Of a DNA stretch of 64,000 bases, positions 16,372 through 24,683 are shown one piece after another (the stretch's first letter is position 1; each line of letters begins with the position of its first letter). The stretch comes from Armatimonadota bacterium (lineage in GTDB: Bacteria; Armatimonadota; HRBIN16), in assembly GCA_026003175.1 (NCBI GenBank), contig BPGT01000002.1:1178001-1242000 (forward strand), given 5' to 3'. The notes beneath the pieces are model-generated. The model did not search any database and was not told the origin of the DNA. It saw nothing but the letters and a program-made list of their open reading frames with translations. The position numbers and the translations under genes were made by a program.

Positions 16372-16440
16372 CTGGAGCGGGGGACGGGAATCGAACCCGC
16401 ACCGCCAGCTTGGAAGGCTGGAGCTCTGCCATTGAGCTAC
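16372..16440. repeat. att site, left copy (tRNA-Gly 3' fragment)
   Basis: 69 bp identical to 24609-24677. It contains the CCA end, T-arm, variable loop, anticodon arm and D-arm of tRNA-Gly on the reverse strand but lacks the 5' acceptor strand (CTGTAGC in place of GGGTAGC), so it cannot fold into a tRNA. It is the duplicated 3' tRNA part produced by site-specific integration. Confidence 0.93.
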
Positions 16441-16442
16441 AG

Positions 16443-16499
16443 ACACAACATGTTGTACCCAAAACGCCTATACAGGCAGAATCAACACAAGATGTTGTG
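16443..16499. promoter_or_regulatory. Candidate integrase arm-type sites, left end
   Basis: Two copies of the 14-bp motif CACAACATSTTGTG. CACAACATGTTGTA lies at 16444-16457, three bases after the 69-bp core, and an inverted CACAACATCTTGTG (read on the reverse strand) lies at 16486-16499. The same motif occurs twice beside the right core, once also exactly three bases from it. Confidence 0.7.
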
Positions 16500-16547
16500 T
16501 GTCTCAGACTGACAAGATTCAGAAGGCTGGCGTTCCGCACAGGGGTC

Positions 16548-16577
16548 TTGACGCAGGCTCGCAGAGGATGCTACACT
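16548..16577 (+). promoter_or_regulatory. Probable promoter for the sigma-like gene pair
   Basis: TTGACG (16548-16553) and TACACT (16572-16577) with an 18-bp spacer, about 90 bp upstream of the gene at 16671. It is the only good sigma70-like match in the left end of the element. Confidence 0.5.
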
Positions 16578-16670
16578 GTCTCTGCGTTCAGCACCTGCCC
16601 TGCTGGACGCCACGCCTGCGGTAGTCACCACTACGCGCAGGCACTCCCATCATAACAAGCAGAGGCAGAG

Positions 16671-16928
16671 ATGTCAAGCGATTATGTGGAACCAGAAGAC
16701 CTCAGTGCGCTCGAAACCTTCCTGCAGGTCGAACACTCCATCGATGTCCACCGTGCCCTTCGCCAACTCTATAGCACTCAGGGCTGTGAACATCTTGCGG
16801 TGCTCGCCTTACGCTACGGGTTCGGTTATGACCTGCGCACTATTGCCTTCATCATGAACAGGCAGAAGAAGCAGGTGGAGCGCACTCTACACCACTGCCT
16901 GCAACAGCTGGCAGATTACATGGTGTAA
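16671..16928 (+). CDS. Small HTH protein resembling sigma factor region 4
   Basis: 85 residues. From residue 38 on (EHLAVLALRYGFGYDLRTIA, then FIMNRQKKQVERTLHHCLQQL) it follows the pattern of sigma70 region 4: the LRYG helix, the helix-turn-helix and a C-terminal recognition helix ending in a Leu. The N-terminal part has no match I know. Alone it lacks region 2, so it could not recognise a -10 box. The gene 94 bp downstream resembles region 2, suggesting a two-subunit sigma factor. RBS is weak (GAGGCAGAG). The alternative is a simple phage-type HTH repressor. Confidence 0.65.
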   Translation: MSSDYVEPEDLSALETFLQVEHSIDVHRALRQLYSTQGCEHLAVLALRYGFGYDLRTIAFIMNRQKKQVERTLHHCLQQLADYMV

Positions 16929-16945
16929 CGCAGGCAACAACTCGT

Positions 16946-16961
16946 GAGACAAAAGTGTCTC
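16946..16961. promoter_or_regulatory. Palindrome between the two sigma-like genes
   Basis: The inverted repeat GAGACA-AAAG-TGTCTC is followed at once by another TGTCTC (16966-16971). It lies in the 94-bp gap ahead of the region 2-like gene and could be an operator or a weak hairpin. Confidence 0.35.
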
Positions 16962-17025
16962 ATTCTGTCTCAAACATGAGTTTGCTTACAATTCTCAAAC
17001 TCTGTCGGGAACGATGTAATGAGTG

Positions 17026-17352
17026 ATGACACTGGACGCGCTCCTGCAAGGCAATCCTGCTTATGATGATGCTCTGGCGGATGGGGTGCTCCAACACTAC
17101 ATGCGCTTTAAGCACTCTGCCATTGCCCGCCTGCAAAGTATGGGCATGGATGCCGATGATGTAGAGCAGGAATTACGCATCGCCCTCTGGAAGGCGTGGA
17201 GCACCTGGACGGGGCAAATCGCCCTGCGCAGGTGGCTGTCGTGGAAGCTGGATTACCGCCTGCGTGACATGGAACGAAACTGTGCCAAACAGCTACAGCG
17301 ACTGAAGATTGTTTACCTCGAAGACCTCCTTCCTCCTGAAAACACAGACTGA
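17026..17352 (+). CDS. Small protein resembling sigma factor region 2
   Basis: 108 residues from ATG 17026 (a GTG directly before it is also possible). The stretch MDADDVEQELRIALWKAW, then RRWLSWKLDYRLRDMERN, matches sigma70 region 2: the acidic core-binding helix, the aromatic/basic -10 recognition helix, and the Arg-rich RLRD segment. There is no region 4 in this protein; that fold is in the preceding gene. Split sigma factors such as SigO-RsoA of Bacillus show this division can work. A role in late or excision gene expression of the element is my inference. It ends at a strong hairpin. Confidence 0.65.
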   Translation: MTLDALLQGNPAYDDALADGVLQHYMRFKHSAIARLQSMGMDADDVEQELRIALWKAWSTWTGQIALRRWLSWKLDYRLRDMERNCAKQLQRLKIVYLEDLLPPENTD

Positions 17353-17392
17353 ACCTCCTTGCCCAGCAGGCTTGCGCGCCCGGGTGCAGGTA

Positions 17393-17420
17393 GCGGGCAG
17401 GGCGCGTGCGCCCTGCCCGC
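17393..17420. terminator. Bidirectional GC hairpin between convergent genes
   Basis: A perfect inverted repeat with 13-bp arms (GCGGGCAGGGCGC and its complement) and a 2-bp loop, placed between the ends of the forward sigma-like gene and the reverse gene ending at 17422. It has no T-tract. The same arms recur at 18705-18732. Confidence 0.6.
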
Positions 17421-17421
17421 G

Positions 17422-17790
17422 TCACTCATCTACAATCTCCACTTCCTCAAACGAGTCCATGCGGTGAGCTAACGCCAGAATACCGCGCAGTTCCTTCACC
17501 GCCAGCAACGCCGTCCGCAGGTCACCCTCACGCTGAGCGCGCTCCAGTATGGCAAGCGTCCGTCGCTGCAACTGCTCCACCTGCTCATACAGCGACACCG
17601 CCAGTTCGCACTCTTCCTCTTCACGCGCCCTGAGCAATAACTCAGGCAGGTGGCTCCCCTTGTGACGGTGTAACGCGGTGACGCTGATTCCGTATTGTTC
17701 CGCTATGTTCCGCAACGGCTCACCACGAATCAGGTCTTCCTCAATGTGCTCCCGCATAGGGTGACTACATACCGTGCAGACTCTGGGCAA
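17422..17790 (-). CDS. CxxC zinc-finger HTH protein
   Basis: 122 residues. It begins MPRVCTVCSHPMREHIEED, with a CxxC and a downstream His that could bind zinc, then a helix-turn-helix (LRNIAEQYGISVTALHRHK) and a long charged alpha-helical C-terminus. I chose the TTG at 17790 because AGGAGG sits eight bases before it; ATG 17811 or TTG 17817 would add 7-9 residues and place that RBS inside the gene. It overlaps the preceding gene by 26 bp. Small DNA-binding proteins of this shape occur in phages and satellites, and a terminase-small-subunit or excisionase-type role is possible but unproven. Confidence 0.6.
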   Translation of the reverse strand: MPRVCTVCSHPMREHIEEDLIRGEPLRNIAEQYGISVTALHRHKGSHLPELLLRAREEEECELAVSLYEQVEQLQRRTLAILERAQREGDLRTALLAVKELRGILALAHRMDSFEEVEIVDE

Positions 17791-18010
17791 CCGCCTCACC
17801 TCCTGAATCATCCTCAAACACGCCCTGCGCCTTCAGTGCCTTCAACAGACGGTGAAAGGCTTGATTCAGTTCCGTCGCCTGTCGGTGCACCTGCGCGTAG
17901 TCCTCACGCGAAGGAACCGCGCCCATCGCCACCAGAGTATACAACCGCCTTAACGCGCCTGTAGCGTGTTGCATGTTGACTACCGCGTCCCTGCAAAGGT
18001 TGTGTGTCAT
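17765..18010 (-). CDS. Small helical protein of unknown function
   Basis: 81 residues, no family recognised. It is mostly amphipathic helix (VVNMQHATGALRRLYTLV; ATELNQAFHRLLKALKAQG) with an acidic C-terminal section, a shape common in small phage or plasmid accessory proteins. GAGGAGGTGA lies about seven bases before the ATG, one of the best ribosome sites in the element. It starts 7 bp after the nuclease gene stop and overlaps the next gene, so it belongs to the same reverse-strand operon. Confidence 0.6.
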   Translation of the reverse strand: MTHNLCRDAVVNMQHATGALRRLYTLVAMGAVPSREDYAQVHRQATELNQAFHRLLKALKAQGVFEDDSGGEAVAQSLHGM

Positions 18011-18016
18011 TGCTGT

Positions 18017-18319
18017 TCACCTCCTCAAGGTTCGTTCAATCTCTGCCCAGCACTCAGGCGTCCACAGGTAGACCTCCACCTGCGGACACGCGCCTAACTG
18101 GGCAAGCCAGTGCTGTTGTGCTGGCGAGGCACGATTGCGACCTACCTTCAACTCCACAAACAGCAGACGTGGAGGACGCACCAGCACTAAATCAGGGAAA
18201 CCTGCAGGCGAGTGGAGACTGTGCCACGTATGGTAACACAGCCATCCCTGCAACTCTGCCAGCTCTCTCACCGCCTGCAGGAACTCCTTCTCACGTATGG
18301 GCACTGCGCCGCTTGCCAT
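18017..18319 (-). CDS. VRR-NUC domain nuclease
   Basis: 100 residues, the size of a stand-alone VRR-NUC domain. The core GFPDLVLVRPPRLLFVELKV carries the Asp and the Glu-x-Lys of the PD-(D/E)XK fold, and the C-terminal QQHWLAQLG helix is typical. Phage copies cut DNA replication or recombination intermediates such as flaps or Holliday junctions. It lies in the operon between two small unknown genes and downstream of the PrimPol, SSB-like and zinc genes, which together look like a replication and repair module. Confidence 0.8.
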   Translation of the reverse strand: MASGAVPIREKEFLQAVRELAELQGWLCYHTWHSLHSPAGFPDLVLVRPPRLLFVELKVGRNRASPAQQHWLAQLGACPQVEVYLWTPECWAEIERTLRR

Positions 18320-18322
18320 GAT

Positions 18323-18673
18323 TCAGAACAGCCTGCCTTGCTTCGGGTCTTCGGTGTGCCACAGATTCAACGGCAGGGCAATCTGCTCACCGTGTCCGCG
18401 CTGAATGCGGATGCCCTTCTGCCACACCGTCGCCAGTGGGGCAGTGTAGGTGATGCCGTTCTCCACGTCGTGAACCTCCACCAGTGACGCGCCTGCCTCA
18501 TGTGCCTGCTCCAGGATGTTGCGCTCAAATGCCCACGCAGGGGGGTGTCGCAACTGGTGACGGCTCGCCTGCACCCTGCGCTTCAGGATGCCCTGCTCCA
18601 GCACACAACCGCTGTGCCTGCCGTCACGGGTGTAGAGGACTCGCCTTGCTGTTCGTGTAACTGTGCTTTGCAT
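18323..18673 (-). CDS. Hypothetical protein of the integrated element
   Basis: 116 residues, no recognised family. The N-terminus is basic (MQSTVTRTARRVLYTRDGRH); the middle contains RRVQASRHQLRHPPAWAFE followed by an amphipathic helix (NILEQAHEAGASLVEVHD) and a short beta-rich end. GGAG is positioned before the ATG. It ends 3 bp before the nuclease gene, so the two are cotranscribed. The basic face suggests nucleic-acid contact, but this is only inferred from composition. Confidence 0.55.
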   Translation of the reverse strand: MQSTVTRTARRVLYTRDGRHSGCVLEQGILKRRVQASRHQLRHPPAWAFERNILEQAHEAGASLVEVHDVENGITYTAPLATVWQKGIRIQRGHGEQIALPLNLWHTEDPKQGRLF

Positions 18674-18704
18674 CTGAATACACTCCTTTCGTTTGTGTTT
18701 GGGG

Positions 18705-18732
18705 GCGGGCAGGGCGCGCGCGCCCTGCCCGC
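18705..18732. terminator. GC hairpin, second copy
   Basis: The same 13-bp arms as at 17393-17420 (GCGGGCAGGGCGC and complement) with a GC loop, between the SSB-like gene and the gene starting at 18673. Here it sits inside a run of same-strand genes, so it may attenuate rather than end transcription. Confidence 0.5.
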
Positions 18733-18741
18733 TTCCCTCTC

Positions 18742-19209
18742 TTACTGCGCGAAGGGGTCGTCAGGGTCTTCCTCGTCTGCCATCTCGTAGAACCCCTGTT
18801 TGGTGGCAGGAACCGCCACCATGCCATGCTTCACGCGCACCTGTGCCTGCACGCGCTTCAGGGGCAGGATGTCGGTCACACGCGCAAACTCGCGCCCGTC
18901 TGCCGTCTGCTTGACCTGCACCACCGCGCGAGCACGCTTGCCCTGCAGGGCGTCGAAGTCCAGCACGTCACCCTGCGCGTAGGGCTTGCCGTTGAAAGCT
19001 GCTGCCCACTTCACCGCCTTCGCGTTGACCGCTGTGCTGGCGTTCGTCCACGCCCGCAGTTCCGCGCCCTCATACTCGCCTTCTGCCACGCGCAACTGCC
19101 ACACGAACTGCTCGCCGTAGGTTCCGGTCTGCTCCTTCACGTCCAGCAGTTCAACAGTGTACACGTCGTCAGGCAAGGTCTGTGCTTGTGCTGTCACCAG
19201 CAGTTTCAT
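18742..19209 (-). CDS. SSB-like OB-fold protein with acidic tail
   Basis: 155 residues from ATG 19209, preceded by AAGGAGG; a longer reading to 19308 would overlap the neighbour and lacks an RBS. The body (YTVELLDVKEQTGTYGEQF; GEYEGAELRAWTNAST; ARAVVQVKQTADGREFARVT) alternates beta strands as in phage OB-fold DNA-binding proteins. The C-terminus DEEDPDDPFAQ is acidic and near-identical in style to the DDDIPF tip by which SSB recruits partners. I infer a single-stranded DNA-binding protein for replication of the element. Family not named with certainty. Confidence 0.6.
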   Translation of the reverse strand: MKLLVTAQAQTLPDDVYTVELLDVKEQTGTYGEQFVWQLRVAEGEYEGAELRAWTNASTAVNAKAVKWAAAFNGKPYAQGDVLDFDALQGKRARAVVQVKQTADGREFARVTDILPLKRVQAQVRVKHGMVAVPATKQGFYEMADEEDPDDPFAQ

Positions 19210-19288
19210 GACGTTACCTCCTTTGTGTGTTGTGTTCGTGTTTCGTCTGTCTATGTCAACCGCCCTGAGGCGGGGGCTACCTAATCGT

Positions 19289-19702
19289 TCACACCTCTGG
19301 TATTCCAAACAGTTTGTGCATTACGCCACGCCAGTCTGTAAAATCAAACCAGACCTTCTCCTGCAGGTGTAGCGTCCACACGAGGGCTTTGCGCACCGTG
19401 TTAATCCGTCTGCCCTCAATGGGGTAACCCCATTCCCACTCCTCATCAGTGATGCAGTCCAGATGCACCACCAGCCAGGGCTCCAGTTTCAATCTGGTCA
19501 GTTCAGACAGAGGGTACACCACCGTCTTCAGCCAGGCGTCCATGTCACCGTTAGCAAGTGCGTCCTCACCTTCACGGGTGCGCTTGCGTTCCCATGCCTC
19601 AAACTCCTGCCGAGACTGCTGTGCCTTCCCGCTGTCGCACCACACCACCAGTTCGCGCCAGCTGCGAATCGGCTGCCCACACCGGTCACAGGTCAGGTTC
19701 AT
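19289..19702 (-). CDS. Zinc-ribbon protein of unknown function
   Basis: 137 residues. It opens MNLTCDRCGQPIRSWRELV, a single CxxC knuckle; a later His-x-Asp-Cys (VHLDCITDEEW) could complete a zinc site. The rest is rich in Trp and charged residues, with an acidic helical section in the middle. The start overlaps the end of the PrimPol gene by 4 bp (ATGA), so translation is coupled. No known family. A helper of the replication protein is plausible from position alone. Confidence 0.6.
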   Translation of the reverse strand: MNLTCDRCGQPIRSWRELVVWCDSGKAQQSRQEFEAWERKRTREGEDALANGDMDAWLKTVVYPLSELTRLKLEPWLVVHLDCITDEEWEWGYPIEGRRINTVRKALVWTLHLQEKVWFDFTDWRGVMHKLFGIPEV

Positions 19703-22134
19703 GTGTTCAATACCTCCTTCGCGAATGTCCTCAAACTGCCACAGTCAACACAACGCCAGTGCCCATCACGAGTTAGCTCATGTAGCATAGAACACCCGCA
19801 GGTGTCGCACCATGCTGCCACACCGTCACGCAGTGGTATGACTGCTGTGCGGTAATCAGGGATGTCAGAATCATCCTCAGGATCAACAGTAACTGCTTTA
19901 CTGTTGGAGCCTGATTCGGAATCATCAACAGTAACAGGTTTACTGTTACTGGCTTCAACAGTAAACGCTTTACTGTTAGGTGGAGATTCAACAGTAACAG
20001 GTTTACTGTTGGGTAGGTCCTTAGTTTCCGCAGAATGTGCGGAACCTTGCGGAACCTTCGGAACCTTCGGAACCTTAACGGTTTCCAACACACCAGAGGT
20101 AGGTTCCGTAGTTTCCGCAGTTTCCGTAGTTTCCGTAGTTTCCGTAGGTTCCGTAGTTTCCGCAATAGTTTGCGGAACCTTAATTGCTACCACACAGGCA
20201 GGGGTGTGCAGTTTGATTGTTACCTGTGGTATGGCGTACGTTCGTTCGCTGTTCTTGTAGCCACCGCGCCCTTCTGCCAGTCTCCCTCTTCGCACCAGTG
20301 TTTTCAGCAGACGGTCAAGCGTGTCTTCCGAAGCCTCACTACCGAATGCCTCCAGCAGCTGCTTGCGCGTGCAGTTCCCCTGTGTCCGCACAAACTGTAC
20401 GATGCGTTCCTGCAACGTCAGCGGTCTCTCCTCGCCCTGCACAGGTGCGAACCGCCCGAAGTGCTTGGCGTATGTTGCCTGCCACCTTTCACCACTTCGG
20501 CACTTCACCACGCGCAGCTGTACCTCTGTCGCCGACGGTTCGCCGTCAGGGTCTGCCAGCAAAGCAACCGTGTCAGCCTTCGCGCCAAACACGTAACTGT
20601 TCGCCAGTGCGGTCACACGCTTCAGGGTGCTTGCCTTGTTCGGGTGGTGGATTGCCAACACGGCAACGCCTGTCTTCTCCACCAACTGGCGAAGTGCGTT
20701 CATCAACGGGCGAACCTTACTCTCCTTGTCCGTGTCATCACAGCCAAGCCAGTCGTTAAGCGTGTCCACAATCAGGCATTCTGTCCCGTAAGCAATCAAC
20801 ATGGACGCCCACAGATGCACCGTGTCAGGCGTTAAGCGCAACATGCCTGCCTCTTCCAGTTTGTTCATGTTGGGCGTCATGAACTCAGGCTCCTCGCCGT
20901 AGGTCTGCTCATACTTCTCACGGATGCGTCCCTCGCTGTGGTCATAATGCAACCACACAACACGCGCCTGTGATTGTGGACGTTCGCCCAGCGTGGTGTC
21001 ATCACGGGTCAGCGCGTGGGCAATCTCCAAAGCAAGCGTGGTCTTGCCTGCACCTGCTTCTCCTGCCAGTATGGTAATCTCGCCACGCGCCAGCAGGTTC
21101 GGCAGTAACCAGTCTACAGGGAGGGCTTCCACCTCTTTCAACGGTCGCAGGAAGCCTGCCCAGTCCACTGGTGGGGCAAGACGTTCGGGTTCCATTCTGT
21201 GCCCTTTGCCATACTGCTTTGCCAGTGCCTTCGCAGCAGCAGAGAAGTCGCCACCATGCTCTAACAGGGTGTATACCGCGAAGGGCGAATAAGCACGTCC
21301 TGCCTCAAAGGGTGGCGCGTTCGTGGTGAACACATACAGCGTGCCCAACTGGGGATGCCATGACGCCGACACACCACGCGGTTTGCCTGGACGGGTCAGG
21401 TAGATGTTGCCCTCGCGCCCGTTGCCAGCAACACGCCAACCGTGACGCTGTAGCAACTCCAGCACGTCGCCCTCTTGATTGAACCTGTCGCCGACGCGCT
21501 GTGCTTCCCCAGTGACGCGCAAGGGGGCAGGTTCTGGCTTGGGGGCTTCGTCAAACAGCCGTGCCAGTGCGAGAATGTCTTCCAGCTGTTCATCACTCAG
21601 TGTCGGCACACTGGTTAAGTCACCACGCACCCACTCGTAGGGCTTGCGGTTCTCATGGCACTCTGCAGGCGTTGGTGGCACGATGCTGTACTTGCCGTCC
21701 CCAATCAGCGCAATCGCCTCACGCTTACGCCCGTCAGCGTCCACGCGGTACGCCAGCACGGTGGAGTGCAGTTCGCCATCATACCGAAAGAACAGTCTCT
21801 TGCCAGGTCGTGGTGTGCGACACTGTGGCATGGCGAACAGCAGTTCGCTGTCGTAAGCCAGCAGTTCGGTGATGAACGCTTCGCCGATGGTCAGGTCGTC
21901 AAGGTCGAGGGCGTATAGTCCACCAGACACTGCGCCACACACCACAGCGACGCCACGCCGTGCACCGTTGCCGAACCATTCGCGAATCTCATCTTCAGTG
22001 GGCAGTCGCTTCTGAAGCGGTTCCCAAGTCTTCAGTGCTGGTGCTTTGCTGCCGTCGGCGCGTATGGGCAGGATGCTCAAGCCTGCGCGTTGGTAGCGAA
22101 TGGCGACGTCCTTCAAGTCACTCTGTGGAATCAT
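19699..22134 (-). CDS. PrimPol-helicase replication protein
   Basis: 811 residues. Residues 1-190 form a bifunctional primase-polymerase domain (LDLDD at 76-80, TPRPGKRLFF, GDGKYSIVPPTP). Residues 335-560 form a RepA-like hexameric helicase ATPase with Walker A GEAGAGKTT (358-366), Walker B CLIVDTLND (453-461) and AIHHPNK. A winged-helix-like region follows (LTLQERIVQFVRTQGNCTR), then a low-complexity linker (about 640-765) and a C-terminal zinc ribbon (WCDTCGC and WRCVDCG). The linker DNA holds the iteron-like repeats at 19884-20178, so origin and initiator may be one locus, as in lambda gene O. It is the main replication gene of the element. RBS is weak; the start overlaps the upstream small gene by 17 bp. 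Confidence 0.85.
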   Translation of the reverse strand: MIPQSDLKDVAIRYQRAGLSILPIRADGSKAPALKTWEPLQKRLPTEDEIREWFGNGARRGVAVVCGAVSGGLYALDLDDLTIGEAFITELLAYDSELLFAMPQCRTPRPGKRLFFRYDGELHSTVLAYRVDADGRKREAIALIGDGKYSIVPPTPAECHENRKPYEWVRGDLTSVPTLSDEQLEDILALARLFDEAPKPEPAPLRVTGEAQRVGDRFNQEGDVLELLQRHGWRVAGNGREGNIYLTRPGKPRGVSASWHPQLGTLYVFTTNAPPFEAGRAYSPFAVYTLLEHGGDFSAAAKALAKQYGKGHRMEPERLAPPVDWAGFLRPLKEVEALPVDWLLPNLLARGEITILAGEAGAGKTTLALEIAHALTRDDTTLGERPQSQARVVWLHYDHSEGRIREKYEQTYGEEPEFMTPNMNKLEEAGMLRLTPDTVHLWASMLIAYGTECLIVDTLNDWLGCDDTDKESKVRPLMNALRQLVEKTGVAVLAIHHPNKASTLKRVTALANSYVFGAKADTVALLADPDGEPSATEVQLRVVKCRSGERWQATYAKHFGRFAPVQGEERPLTLQERIVQFVRTQGNCTRKQLLEAFGSEASEDTLDRLLKTLVRRGRLAEGRGGYKNSERTYAIPQVTIKLHTPACVVAIKVPQTIAETTEPTETTETTETAETTEPTSGVLETVKVPKVPKVPQGSAHSAETKDLPNSKPVTVESPPNSKAFTVEASNSKPVTVDDSESGSNSKAVTVDPEDDSDIPDYRTAVIPLRDGVAAWCDTCGCSMLHELTRDGHWRCVDCGSLRTFAKEVLNT
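19884..20011. repeat. Four palindromic iteron-like repeats inside the PrimPol gene
   Basis: Four 23-bp copies of CAACAGTAA-N5-TTACTGTTG/A, at 19884-19906, 19926-19948, 19956-19978 and 19989-20011. Each encodes one Asn-Ser-Lys-x-x-Thr-Val unit. The arms are identical even at synonymous codon positions, while the centres vary and change amino acids. That pattern suggests the DNA is what is conserved. Candidate initiator-binding sites of a replication origin. Confidence 0.7.
20024..20178. repeat. GTTTCC/GGAACC direct and inverted repeats
   Basis: Next to the palindromic set lies a second family: TTTCCGTAG-type units in tandem (20101-20164) and CGGAACCTT units in the opposite sense (20039-20076), bounded by GTTTCCGCA (20024-20032) and TGCGGAACC (20171-20179). 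They encode a Thr-Glu-Thr-rich and a Val-Pro-Lys-rich linker. They could be a second iteron set or the unwinding region of the origin, or simply a low-complexity coding repeat. Confidence 0.55.
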
Positions 22135-22318
22135 CCCCGTCGCCCTCCACCAGTCGCCGCAGGCGTTCTACCTCAATGTCAGCGCGTGCTTCTGCTTCCC
22201 AACGGTCAAACAGTGCCTTAATCGCTTCGCCAACCGCCCGCAGTACCTCAGGGTCACTGCTCGCCAGTAGGGGGCGGTCAGAGTGGCGGATGTCGGTCAC
22301 CAGTATAGCCTTCGGCAT
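22118..22318 (-). CDS. Small acidic helical protein
   Basis: 66 residues, no known family. It begins with a short strand-like stretch (MPKAILVTDIRHSD) and continues as one long charged helix with heptad-like Leu and Ile spacing (EVLRAVGEAIKALFDRW), ending in an acidic tail (EGDGDDSTE). It overlaps the PrimPol start by 17 bp. The ribosome site GAGAGGGGG is the right arm of an inverted repeat (22326-22368) that could hide it, suggesting translational control. Confidence 0.55.
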   Translation of the reverse strand: MPKAILVTDIRHSDRPLLASSDPEVLRAVGEAIKALFDRWEAEARADIEVERLRRLVEGDGDDSTE

Positions 22319-22325
22319 ACGAAAA

Positions 22326-22368
22326 CCCCCTCTCGTTGTCCTCCACTATATAAGCACCCGAGAGGGGG
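22326..22368. promoter_or_regulatory. Inverted repeat covering a ribosome site and a TATATA box
   Basis: 10-bp perfect arms CCCCCTCTCG (22326-22335) and CGAGAGGGGG (22359-22368) with a 23-bp loop that contains TATATA. On the reverse strand the second arm is followed by TTTTCGT and then the ATG of the 66-residue gene. It could be a terminator for the upstream gene, an operator around a -10 box, or a hairpin sequestering the RBS. Confidence 0.45.
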
Positions 22369-22396
22369 CAAAACGTCTACAGCTTTGGGGCAATTT

Positions 22397-23359
22397 TCAG
22401 GGTGTTCGCGAAAATTGTTTGCGGGCGCGTTCCAGAAGTGTTCGGGCGGTGCTTGGACTGATCCCAAGTTCCTCTGCAGCTTCGCTTGCGCTCTTGCCTT
22501 CCATCATGAGGCGTAACAGGTCAGCAGTACGTTTACCCAAGCGTGCCAGTGCGCGGTTCACAGCGTCCTCATCTGCTACCACCTCTAAGGGGTCAGGTTC
22601 ATTGCTGGGGGCAAGTTCCACAGGTGAGGGCTCGTCTTCAGGTAAGTCGGCTACTAGTGTTTCCAGTGCCGAAGCAAGGGGGTGCTTTTCGTTCATCTTT
22701 TCAAGCGCATGTTCCAACGCGAGAAAACGAACGAATTGCTGTTTGAGTCTTCGCTTTGAAAGTGGTTTACGTGCTGTCTCAAATCGCTTGTCAATCACTG
22801 CTGTCTCTACATCTGGCGCAAGTATGTGGGCAACAGCGTCAGCTAGAGCGACAGGATTAGAAGCACCAAAGAGTCGTTCAAAGCTGGCGAATGTCATGCC
22901 ATACCCTACTGCAGAGGTCGCCGCAAGGGGGAAGGCAATTGCCCAATCCTCCACAGGCACGTACCCTACCATCGTCACCCATGCAACTAACAATACAGCA
23001 TGGCTCCATTCGTTAGGCTTGATGTCTGCAGGTGGGCTGTTCAGGATGCGTTTGAGCAGCAACATAGTATTGGCACATTCTCTGAATCGGGAAGCCTGCT
23101 TGCAGTTACGCTTTGCCAGTGTGTCGCCTGTTATTACAGCAGCTGCCTCCACAGTATTAAGAAAACGGTTTACTATTGCCCTGTCATCTACAGGCTCCTC
23201 AAACATGTGCTTGCCGAGCAGAAGCAAACCGTCGGAGGCTGTTGTTCGCATACGAAGCTGAGCTGCTGTGGTAACTGCCCTTCGGAGAATCTCCTCATCT
23301 GCGGGTAGAACGGGTTCGGCTTCCTCTGTGATGAATGGGGTAGACTTGTATTTTGGCAT
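22397..23359 (-). CDS. Protein with C-terminal sigma-like HTH
   Basis: 320 residues from ATG 23359, preceded by GGGAGG. The last 60 residues (LGKRTADLLRLMMEGKSASE, then AAEELGISPSTARTLLERARKQF) form a helix-turn-helix of the sigma region 4 or LuxR type. The middle contains two hydrophobic helices (HAVLLVAWVTMVGYV; WAIAFPLAATSAVGYG) and the rest is charged helix with an acidic stretch before the HTH. No whole-protein family is recognised. It could regulate the replication genes or act as a third sigma-like factor of the element. It is the first large gene after the integrase. Confidence 0.6.
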   Translation of the reverse strand: MPKYKSTPFITEEAEPVLPADEEILRRAVTTAAQLRMRTTASDGLLLLGKHMFEEPVDDRAIVNRFLNTVEAAAVITGDTLAKRNCKQASRFRECANTMLLLKRILNSPPADIKPNEWSHAVLLVAWVTMVGYVPVEDWAIAFPLAATSAVGYGMTFASFERLFGASNPVALADAVAHILAPDVETAVIDKRFETARKPLSKRRLKQQFVRFLALEHALEKMNEKHPLASALETLVADLPEDEPSPVELAPSNEPDPLEVVADEDAVNRALARLGKRTADLLRLMMEGKSASEAAEELGISPSTARTLLERARKQFSRTP

Positions 23360-23373
23360 ACGCAACCTCCCTG

Positions 23374-23484
23374 TCAGGCGTTGTTCGCGTGTCGGCTGTC
23401 CACTGGACAGGGCAGTGGACACTTACGGCAGAGGCGTCCCTCTGCACCGACACGCTTCATCTGTATAGACACTTCTACGTTCAT
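23374..23484 (-). CDS. Putative 36-residue cysteine protein
   Basis: A short frame starting MNVEVSIQMKRVGAEGR and continuing LCRKCPLPC, a CxxCxxxC arrangement that could bind zinc. It begins after AGGTGAAACAAAG and ends 14 bp before the start of the next gene, fitting the operon. There is no family match. A longer in-frame reading to 23571 exists but lacks an RBS and crosses the inverted repeat at 23568-23583. May not be expressed. Confidence 0.35.
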   Translation of the reverse strand: MNVEVSIQMKRVGAEGRLCRKCPLPCPVDSRHANNA

Positions 23485-23513
23485 CTTTGTTTCACCTGCG
23501 TTGCCTGTGCTGG

Positions 23514-23583
23514 GGCGGGCGCGTGGACGCCGATTGCCTGAATCTTCCGAATGCCCACCAGTCCAGTCCACGCGCCCGCCTCT
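23514..23583. terminator. Inverted repeat after the integrase
   Basis: Arms GCGGGCGCGTGGAC and GTCCACGCGCCCGC, 14 bp, with a loop of about 40 bp, between the integrase stop (23587) and the small cysteine gene. It probably separates integrase transcription from the replication operon. There is no clear T-tract. Confidence 0.45.
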
Positions 23584-23586
23584 GTT

Positions 23587-24516
23587 CTACCTGCGCCCTC
23601 TGAGAAGATTCAACGGACTGTGTTGCTGGTGCGCCTGCTTCAGGTCTTGCTCCACCAGAGACAGGTATACCTGCGTCGTCTTCAGGTCGCTGTGTCCCAT
23701 GAGAAGCCTCAGGTGCTCCAGGTCAATCCCTGCACGCAGGCTCCACGTGGCGAAGGTGCGCCTTAACTGGTGCGCTCCCAACCGCAAGCCTGCACGCTTG
23801 CCTGCCTTGCGCACTGCCAGCTTGATGCCGTGCAGGGTCAACGCGCCAGAGGCTCCCCACCACAGAGGGCTGTCTGCCTGCAGTTTCACACCGTGCTGTG
23901 TCTGGTAAGCCTTCAGGTAACGTTGCACCGCAAGCCTCACCTCTGCACTCAACACCACCACGCGCTGTTTACCGCCTTTGCCCTTGATGACTACCGTGTC
24001 ACCTGCTACGTCGCCCACGCGCAACTGGTGACACTCGTGGATGCGCAGTCCCGTGTCCAGCAACAGCAGAATCAATGCCCTGTCGCGAAGATTCAGCCAG
24101 TCCTTGCCAGTGCACGCCTGCAGCAGTTTCTCCACCTCTTCAGGCGTCAGGGCAGGTTTAAGCACCTGTTCGCGCTTGGGCGGTTCCACCTTCGCGAAGG
24201 GGTTGTGTTCGGTCAGTCCCTCACGGATGCACCAGTTCCAGAAAGCGCGAGGGTTGCGGTAGCTATTGTGCAGGGTATGCGTGCTGAGGTTCTGCTGCTG
24301 GCGGTGGAGTAACCACCTGCGGATGTGCACAGGTTGCACGTCCTCTAAGGCGAAGCAACCTTGCTGTGTCAGGAAGGTGATGAAAGGCGTTACGCTTTCA
24401 CGGTAGTTTTTGAGTGTCCGTGCAGAGGCTCCACGTGCCTGTAAAGCCTCTAACCACAGCTGTAGAGTAACATACAGCGTGCTTGTGTCAGTGATGTGCA
24501 GGCTGGCGTTCTGCAT
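23587..24516 (-). CDS. Tyrosine recombinase (integrase)
   Basis: 309 residues. An N-terminal SAM-like core-binding domain (residues 10-105) is followed by the catalytic domain with Arg158 (TGLRIHE), Lys183 in the KGKGGKQR hairpin, His249 and Arg252 (HQLRR), His275 (MGHSD) and nucleophile Tyr284. All catalytic residues are intact. I chose ATG 24516, preceded by GGAGGAGG; a start at 24552 would lie in an arm-type site. It joins attP and attB at tRNA-Gly. The candidate arm site at 24550-24563 lies in its promoter region, so it may repress itself. It reads away from the tRNA. Confidence 0.93.
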   Translation of the reverse strand: MQNASLHITDTSTLYVTLQLWLEALQARGASARTLKNYRESVTPFITFLTQQGCFALEDVQPVHIRRWLLHRQQQNLSTHTLHNSYRNPRAFWNWCIREGLTEHNPFAKVEPPKREQVLKPALTPEEVEKLLQACTGKDWLNLRDRALILLLLDTGLRIHECHQLRVGDVAGDTVVIKGKGGKQRVVVLSAEVRLAVQRYLKAYQTQHGVKLQADSPLWWGASGALTLHGIKLAVRKAGKRAGLRLGAHQLRRTFATWSLRAGIDLEHLRLLMGHSDLKTTQVYLSLVEQDLKQAHQQHSPLNLLRGRR

Positions 24517-24549
24517 AGTGTCCTCCTCCCGTTTGTGCTTGTGTGAGGA

Positions 24550-24605
24550 CACAACATCTTGTGCGGTTCAACTGCGAAGAGGCTTCAGGGGCACAACATG
24601 TAGTA
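24550..24605. promoter_or_regulatory. Candidate integrase arm-type sites, right end
   Basis: CACAACATCTTGTG at 24550-24563 and CACAACATGTAGTA at 24592-24605. The second ends three bases before the 69-bp core, mirroring the three-base gap on the left side. In the circular form the order would be two direct sites, core, one direct site and one inverted site. Confidence 0.7.
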
Positions 24606-24608
24606 GTT

Positions 24609-24677
24609 CTGGAGCGGGGGACGGGAATCGAACCCGCACCGCCAGCTTGGAAGGCTGGAGCTCTGCCATTGAGCTAC
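24609..24677. repeat. att site, right copy (within intact tRNA-Gly)
   Basis: Identical over 69 bp to 16372-16440. Here the repeat continues into the acceptor strand, so the tRNA gene is complete. Integration therefore replaced the 3' part of the tRNA with the copy carried by the element. Confidence 0.93.
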
Positions 24678-24683
24678 CCCCGC
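24610..24683 (-). tRNA. tRNA-Gly (anticodon TCC)
   Basis: 74 nt including encoded CCA. The acceptor stem GCGGGGG pairs with CCCCCGC, the D-arm begins TAGCTCAATGG, the anticodon loop is CTTCCAA and the T-loop is GGTTCGATTCC. All stems pair. It is the attachment site of the integrated element and the gene whose 3' end was duplicated. Confidence 0.95.

What the first reader, a model, noticed from the sequence alone, without database searches (positions are those of the whole stretch)
19884..20011. Candidate replication origin inside the PrimPol-helicase gene
Four 23-bp palindromes with identical 9-bp arms lie 30-42 bp apart in the 3' part of the gene. Arms are fixed even at synonymous codon positions, while the centres vary and change amino acids. 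This points to DNA-level selection. The layout recalls lambda gene O, where the iterons lie in the initiator gene.
Basis: partly seen in the sequence, partly recalled or inferred. Interest (0 to 1): 0.8.

Follow-up and report, generated by a model that had tools for sequence, protein, structure and literature searches.

The report
Replication-origin repeats inside a primase-helicase gene
A small virus-like element seems to hide its own DNA start site inside the gene for its copying enzyme; related elements do the same with different repeat words, as if each kept a private start signal.

Summary
Four AACAGTAA-N5-TTACTGTT palindromes (19884-20011) lie in the predicted disordered linker of an 811-aa PrimPol/RecA-type helicase, the replicase of an 8.3-kb tRNA-Gly-integrated element (16372-24677). 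They are the only four copies in the 4.1-Mb genome. Nine replicases from this element family, spanning unrelated helicase types, carry the same layout in the 3' part of the gene, nearly each with its own motif. One sibling motif contains GGTGAAC, the core of phage P4's type I origin iteron, at the same 9-bp spacing. The palindromes look like an accessory: the closest distinct ortholog lacks them, while a prophage gene in a sister genome has nine and shares a 41-bp identical stretch. Best reading: an in-gene, element-specific iteron origin (inferred, not shown), with the palindromes as lambda-like accessory sites or a site shared with a helper phage. New variant of a known kind (lambda O, pSK41 rep, P4/PICI origins).

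The parts
16372..16440 (.). attL: 69-bp exact copy of the tRNA-Gly gene end
   Evidence: exact direct repeat with 24609-24677
24609..24677 (.). attR, within tRNA-Gly(tcc) 24610-24683
23587..24552 (-). tyrosine integrase
   Evidence: Phage_integrase 7e-30, phrog_1 8e-51; 45-79% identical to integrases of sibling elements
22397..23422 (-). sigma-70 region-4-like protein
   Evidence: Sigma70_r4_2 1.4e-9
19699..22134 (-). replicase, 811 aa: Prim-Pol (11-175), RecA/DnaB-type helicase (338-502), winged helix (574-634), disordered linker (639-758), C-terminal Cys-rich domain (765-809)
   Evidence: PF09250 9e-18 and AAA_25 7e-29; AlphaFold model, linker pLDDT about 30-35; Foldseek to DnaB, T7 gp4 and KaiC
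20233..20415 (-). coding for the winged-helix domain, proposed origin binder
   Evidence: helices and strands of the model; weak DUF977 and Penicillinase_R matches; binding is inferred
20102..20162 (.). seven TTCCG-core repeats at exact 9-bp spacing (coding strand CGGAA[AC]C)
   Evidence: synonymous test
20040..20074 (.). the same motif inverted: four copies of CGGAACC at 9-10 bp spacing
20026..20044 (.). dyad TTCCGCA-N5-TGCGGAA at one end of the array
20158..20177 (.). dyad TTCCGCA-N6-TGCGGAA at the other end of the array
19884..19906 (.). palindrome 1, AACAGTAA-CTGCT-TTACTGTT plus outer C:G
19926..19948 (.). palindrome 2
19956..19978 (.). palindrome 3
19989..20011 (.). palindrome 4
18742..19308 (-). 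probable single-strand DNA-binding protein
   Evidence: phrog_378 6e-4; conserved in the sibling elements
18017..18319 (-). VRR-NUC nuclease
   Evidence: PF08774 3e-6
17422..17817 (-). helix-turn-helix protein; resemblance to a small terminase subunit is by eye only
   Evidence: only weak HTH matches
17023..17352 (+). sigma-70 region-2-like protein, 44% identical to a protein beside the small terminase gene of the palindrome-bearing prophage
   Evidence: PF04542 8e-6

Best explanation
The linker-coding part of the primase-helicase gene doubles as the replication origin of an excisable, probably satellite-like element. The replicase most likely binds element-specific 8-9-bp iterons (CGGAA[AC]C, 20024-20180) through its winged helix. 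Because the iterons form two convergent sets, helicase could be loaded in both directions. The adjacent AT-rich palindrome cluster (19884-20011) would be an accessory dyad-binding and unwinding region, as the four lambda O dyads are. The encoded peptide is only a disordered tether, so the DNA is free to hold sites as long as the reading frame stays open, which explains the 9-bp period. Shown: the repeats, their DNA-level constraint, their recurrence in sibling replicases, and the predicted disordered linker. Inferred: binding, initiation, excision and satellite life style.
For:: nine replicases hold 2-8 copies of an own motif followed by 2-5 inverted copies in the 3' part of the gene, with 9- or 10-bp period; they include PrimPol-RecA, PrimPol-D5 and an NrS-1-like replicase, and the encoded peptides are unrelated (ETT/KVP, EKI/QFT, VEP/TST); in seven of ten linkers tested alone, inverted 8-mer pairs exceed all 100 within-linker synonymous shuffles (window 46 against mean 4.6, max 16). 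Elements sharing one genome use different motifs (G000: two; G004: five). P4 type I iteron TGTTCACC (= GGTGAACA) sits at 9-bp spacing with inverted copies right behind the alpha gene; sibling L029 uses GGTGAACAC at 9 bp and viral replicase L178 GGGTGAACC; the arrays lie wholly in the disordered linker between a winged helix and a Cys-rich domain; the palindromes are the AT-rich minimum; similar arrays in, or just behind, replicases of some viral contigs. (PMC6092414): PICI origins are two iteron sets flanking an AT-rich region, 3' of the initiator gene.
Against: No binding, copy-number or read-depth data. GC skew shows no clear switch. Among 64 viral replicase relatives only 5 exceed z=3 (13 of 387 other ORFs), so the trait is far from universal. 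Linkers of L001, L023 and L030 do not beat every within-linker shuffle, and the 5' parts of several replicases also show an unexplained milder excess of inverted pairs, so the whole-gene ranking overstates the linker signal. In the window the spacer between the two iteron sets is not AT-rich. The strand folds strongly as RNA (z -7.7), so an RNA role is not excluded.
Confidence: 0.6

Rival explanations
1. The palindromes are not origin parts but a site shared with a helper phage, for example a terminase (pac/cos) site or a helper initiator's site, picked up so that the element is packaged or replicated by the phage. The 9-bp array alone would be the element's own origin.
For: The palindrome array occurs only in this element, its near-twin in G004, and a gene about 1.4 kb upstream of small and large terminase genes of a prophage cluster in G004. 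Prophage gene and window gene share 41 identical bp including a spacer. Element and prophage share a sigma-region-2-like protein (44%). PICIs are known to carry helper pac or cos sites (PMC6092414).
Against: Nine regularly spaced copies are unlike usual pac sites (general knowledge); in the prophage the array sits in the middle of a protein, as origins in initiator genes do; the helper relation itself is untested.
Confidence: 0.25
2. The repeats act in RNA: direct then inverted copies fold the replicase mRNA into hairpins that tune translation or termination.
For: RNA of 19884-20180 folds at -112.5 kcal/mol, z -7.7.
Against: Any inverted repeat folds; the motif is repeated nearly identically 7-8 times and differs between elements, which a hairpin does not need but a recognition site does; P4-type iteron words recur.
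Confidence: 0.08
3. Ordinary low-complexity linker: slippage made 9-bp and 33-bp tandem repeats with no DNA function.
For: Disordered linkers tolerate repeats; copies clearly arose by duplication.
Against: Slippage makes direct, not inverted, copies; inverted pairs exceed every synonymous version; the same convergent layout appears with unrelated motifs in nine replicases.
Confidence: 0.05
4. A dispersed palindromic element that inserts in frame into genes (Rickettsia RPE type).
For: The same palindrome sits in frame in two unrelated proteins.
Against: Only four copies in the whole genome, all in this gene; absent from 59 of 61 related genomes.
Confidence: 0.01

Closest known systems
Phage lambda gene O / ori-lambda
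   Same: Four dyad-symmetric iterons inside the initiator gene; lambda spacing 20-24 bp.
   Different: O is not a primase-helicase. Here a second, non-palindromic 9-bp array lies beside the dyads, the spacing is 30-42 bp, and there is no sequence relation.
Satellite phage P4 alpha protein with ori/crr type I iterons
   Same: Primase-helicase initiator; 8-bp iterons at 9-bp spacing with inverted copies at the 3' end of the initiator gene; one sibling motif has the same core GGTGAAC.
   Different: P4 crr lies outside alpha; here the array is inside the reading frame, and the helicase is RecA/DnaB-like with a PrimPol domain.
PICI/SaPI rep-ori
   Same: Two sets of iterons at the 3' end of a primase/initiator gene in a small integrated element (PMC6092414).
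   Different: PICI origins lie behind the gene with an AT-rich region between the sets; here the array is coding and the AT-rich part lies to one side.
pSK41 (RepA_N) rep
   Same: Rep boxes lie centrally in rep and the encoded peptide is a linker dispensable for replication (PMC5703833).
   Different: Unrelated plasmid initiator without primase or helicase domains.
pRN1 ORF904 origin
   Same: PrimPol-helicase; putative origin at the 3' end of the gene; sequence not conserved between relatives while the layout is (PMC4234260).
   Different: One long stem-loop outside the gene, no iterons.

Membership tests
In-gene iteron origin (lambda O / pSK41 kind) | Repeated sites inside the initiator coding sequence, in a linker | tested here: met
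In-gene iteron origin (lambda O / pSK41 kind) | Sites constrained as DNA beyond what the protein needs | tested here: met
In-gene iteron origin (lambda O / pSK41 kind) | The initiator binds the sites and replication starts there | not testable with these tools
   needs a binding assay and origin mapping
P4/PICI-type satellite origin | Two oriented iteron sets at the 3' end of a primase-helicase gene | tested here: met
   PMC6092414
P4/PICI-type satellite origin | AT-rich region between the iteron sets | tested here: not met
   the spacer 20075-20101 is not AT-rich; the AT minimum lies beside the array at 19881-20010
P4 alpha family | SF3/D5 helicase with P4-type primase | tested here: not met
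   Prim-Pol plus RecA-fold helicase; D5 helicases occur in siblings only
Phage satellite (PICI-like) | Integrase, tRNA att site, replicase, no capsid genes | tested here: met
Phage satellite (PICI-like) | Induced and packaged by a helper phage | not testable with these tools
   no experiment
Dispersed palindromic element (RPE type) | Many copies across the genome | tested here: not met
   four copies in one gene

The most novel reading that the evidence does not exclude
Integrated satellites of this genus carry a replaceable origin cassette inside the replicase reading frame. Each element has its own private iteron word, the shared layout recurs across unrelated helicase classes, and this element has additionally taken its helper phage's recognition array into the same frame, so one linker holds both its own origin and a hijack site.
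Probability: 0.25. Interest if true: 0.75.

Novelty: new variant of a known kind. Interest (0 to 1): 0.55.

Why it matters
If right, the origin specificity of many uncultured PrimPol-helicase elements can be read from the 3' end of one gene. That would let one predict which elements are incompatible, map origins in metagenomes, and find satellite-helper pairs by shared arrays. It also shows coding linkers used as a fast-changing DNA signal while the protein stays functional.

Tried and rejected
GC skew as an origin mark: uninformative. The first genome pattern used a 4-bp centre by mistake and found nothing; corrected. A single-protein viral scan found no relative; an alignment scan found 67. 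No viral relatives of the prophage gene. Controls with the 8-mer statistic: lambda O detected (z 3.0), N15 repA not (z 0.3), so the test misses degenerate repeats. That the N15 origin lies inside repA is from memory; no held paper was found for it. Whole-gene ranking was first taken as linker evidence; splitting the genes showed that part of the excess lies 5' of the linker, and that one top-ten entry (L027:8065-9783) holds no linker at all, so one search is used only as a pointer. The near-twin element L004/L027 in G004 differs from the window almost only in and near the linker and carries frameshifts, many of them single inserted C, so it may be an assembly artefact and was not used as evidence of conservation. 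A search for P4 iteron papers gave nothing useful.

Full report
What was checked. All four have the invariant left 9-mer CAACAGTAA and right 9-mer TTTACTGTT around a varying centre. The perfect complementarity common to all is 8 bp; the outer pair that makes 23 bp is present in two. They are the only copies in the 4.1-Mb genome. The chance explanation fails: keeping the peptide and drawing codons by the gene's own usage gives 0.74 inverted 7-mer pairs on average (max 9 in 2000), against 53 observed.

The setting. The gene at 19699-22134(-) has a Prim-Pol domain and a RecA/DnaB-type helicase, then a winged helix, a linker of about 120 residues predicted to be disordered, and a small Cys-rich domain. 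It belongs to an 8.3-kb element flanked by a 69-bp exact repeat of the tRNA-Gly end (16372-16440 and 24609-24677), with a tyrosine integrase next to attR and no capsid, portal or large-terminase matches among the ORFs scanned. Sibling elements with related integrase, SSB-like, VRR-NUC and 18323-type genes occur in this and other genomes of the genus. One relative is Bacterium HRbin16.

The missed feature. Beside the palindromes, at 20018-20180, the motif CGGAA[AC]C runs seven times at exactly 9-bp spacing on the coding strand, then four times inverted at 9-10 bp spacing. The whole is bounded by two copies of the dyad TTCCGCA-N5/6-TGCGGAA, at 20026 and 20158. Inverted 7-mer pairs here number 31 against a synonymous mean of 0.41, max 6.

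It is a family trait. The ortholog L001 (HRbin16, 74% identity in the best segment) has neither palindromes nor CGGAA repeats. At the same place it has TTGAGAA five times at 9-bp spacing and then inverted copies. L028 uses TGTAGAA/TTCTACA, L023 GTAGACA/TGTCTAC, L029 GTTCACCG/CGGTGAAC, L024 GTAACAG/CTGTTAC, L077 TTTCGGACG/CGTCCGAAA, L097 TGTAACC/GGTTACA and L026 ACTGAAGG/CCTTCAGT. These replicases include PrimPol-RecA, PrimPol-D5 and NrS-1-like types, so layout and place recur while protein class, peptide and motif differ.

Statistics and their limits. Ranking 256 ORFs by excess inverted 8-mer pairs over synonymous shuffles puts nine replicase ORFs and the palindrome-bearing prophage gene on top. 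Splitting the genes shows that this is not all linker: the 5' parts of the window gene, L001 and L029 also exceed their shuffles, and the L027 entry has no linker. Tested alone, the linkers are far denser: seven of ten exceed all 100 within-linker shuffles (window, L028, L029, L024, L077, L026, L097), L001 only equals the maximum, L023 exceeds the mean only, and L030 shows nothing. Within-linker shuffling is a harsh null because the codons are already motif-rich. Among viral contigs only a minority show the trait: five of 64 replicases exceed z=3, but of the seven ORFs above z=6 three are replicases and three lie just behind the replicase match (for L148 the replicase ORF itself was not called, only its match).

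Why an origin. P4's crr, directly behind the alpha gene, has type I iterons TGTTCACA/TGTTCACC at 9-bp spacing followed by inverted copies. The same core GGTGAAC is the motif of L029, at 9-bp spacing, and of viral replicase L178. PICI origins are described as two iteron sets around an AT-rich region just 3' of the initiator gene (PMC6092414). pSK41 rep holds its Rep boxes in a dispensable linker (PMC5703833). Lambda O has four dyads inside the gene. Elements that coexist in one genome use different words, as incompatibility would demand (G000: window and L024; G004: the window's near-twin L027, L028, L023, L077 and L026).

What the palindromes are. They form the AT-rich minimum of the element and look like dimer sites. 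They are not conserved in the ortholog, but a G004 prophage cluster with terminase, portal and major head genes has nine copies, eight exact, at 33- or 42-bp spacing in the middle of an unrelated protein of about 400 aa. The two arrays share a 41-bp identical stretch that includes a spacer, so they probably exchanged DNA. Accessory origin sites or a helper-phage site are both open; I favour accessory origin sites slightly.

Limits. No experiment, no read depth, and no mapping of replication. The twin element in G004 is too uncertain in just this stretch to use. RNA folding is strong and cannot be excluded as a role. Binding by the winged helix is an inference from domain order and from the P4 and pRN1 models.

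Noticed in passing
16372-24677: A whole 8.3-kb tRNA-Gly-integrated, satellite-like element; siblings with swapped helicase types (RecA-like versus D5) occur elsewhere in the genus.
   Followed up: partly
L025:5633-6805 (G004:C1:653632-654804): Prophage protein of about 400 aa with nine AACAGTAA palindromes in its middle, 1.4 kb upstream of terminase genes and just downstream of a transposase-like ORF; layout resembles lambda O.
   Followed up: partly
16671-16928 and 17023-17352: Two small ORFs resembling sigma-70 region 4 (weakly) and region 2 separately, like a split sigma factor; the prophage in G004 has a counterpart of the second.
   Followed up: no
window 20216-22134 and L001, L029 (5' parts of replicase genes): The 5' parts of several replicase genes also show more short inverted 8-mer pairs than synonymous shuffles (window 45 against 17.7, max 29); cause unknown.
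   Followed up: no
L079 (G000:C4:137000-151000): Decayed sibling element with an integrase 79% identical to the window's and a broken PrimPol-D5 gene.
   Followed up: no
L118:6388-7686: Viral contig with four copies of TTCACTGAGCGAAC, a near-palindrome, plus one inverted copy, in a gene just downstream of the PrimPol relative.
   Followed up: no
L004 / L027 (G004:C1): Near-identical twin of the window element whose differences cluster in and near the linker, with many single-C insertions; possible consensus error or real hypervariability.
   Followed up: partly
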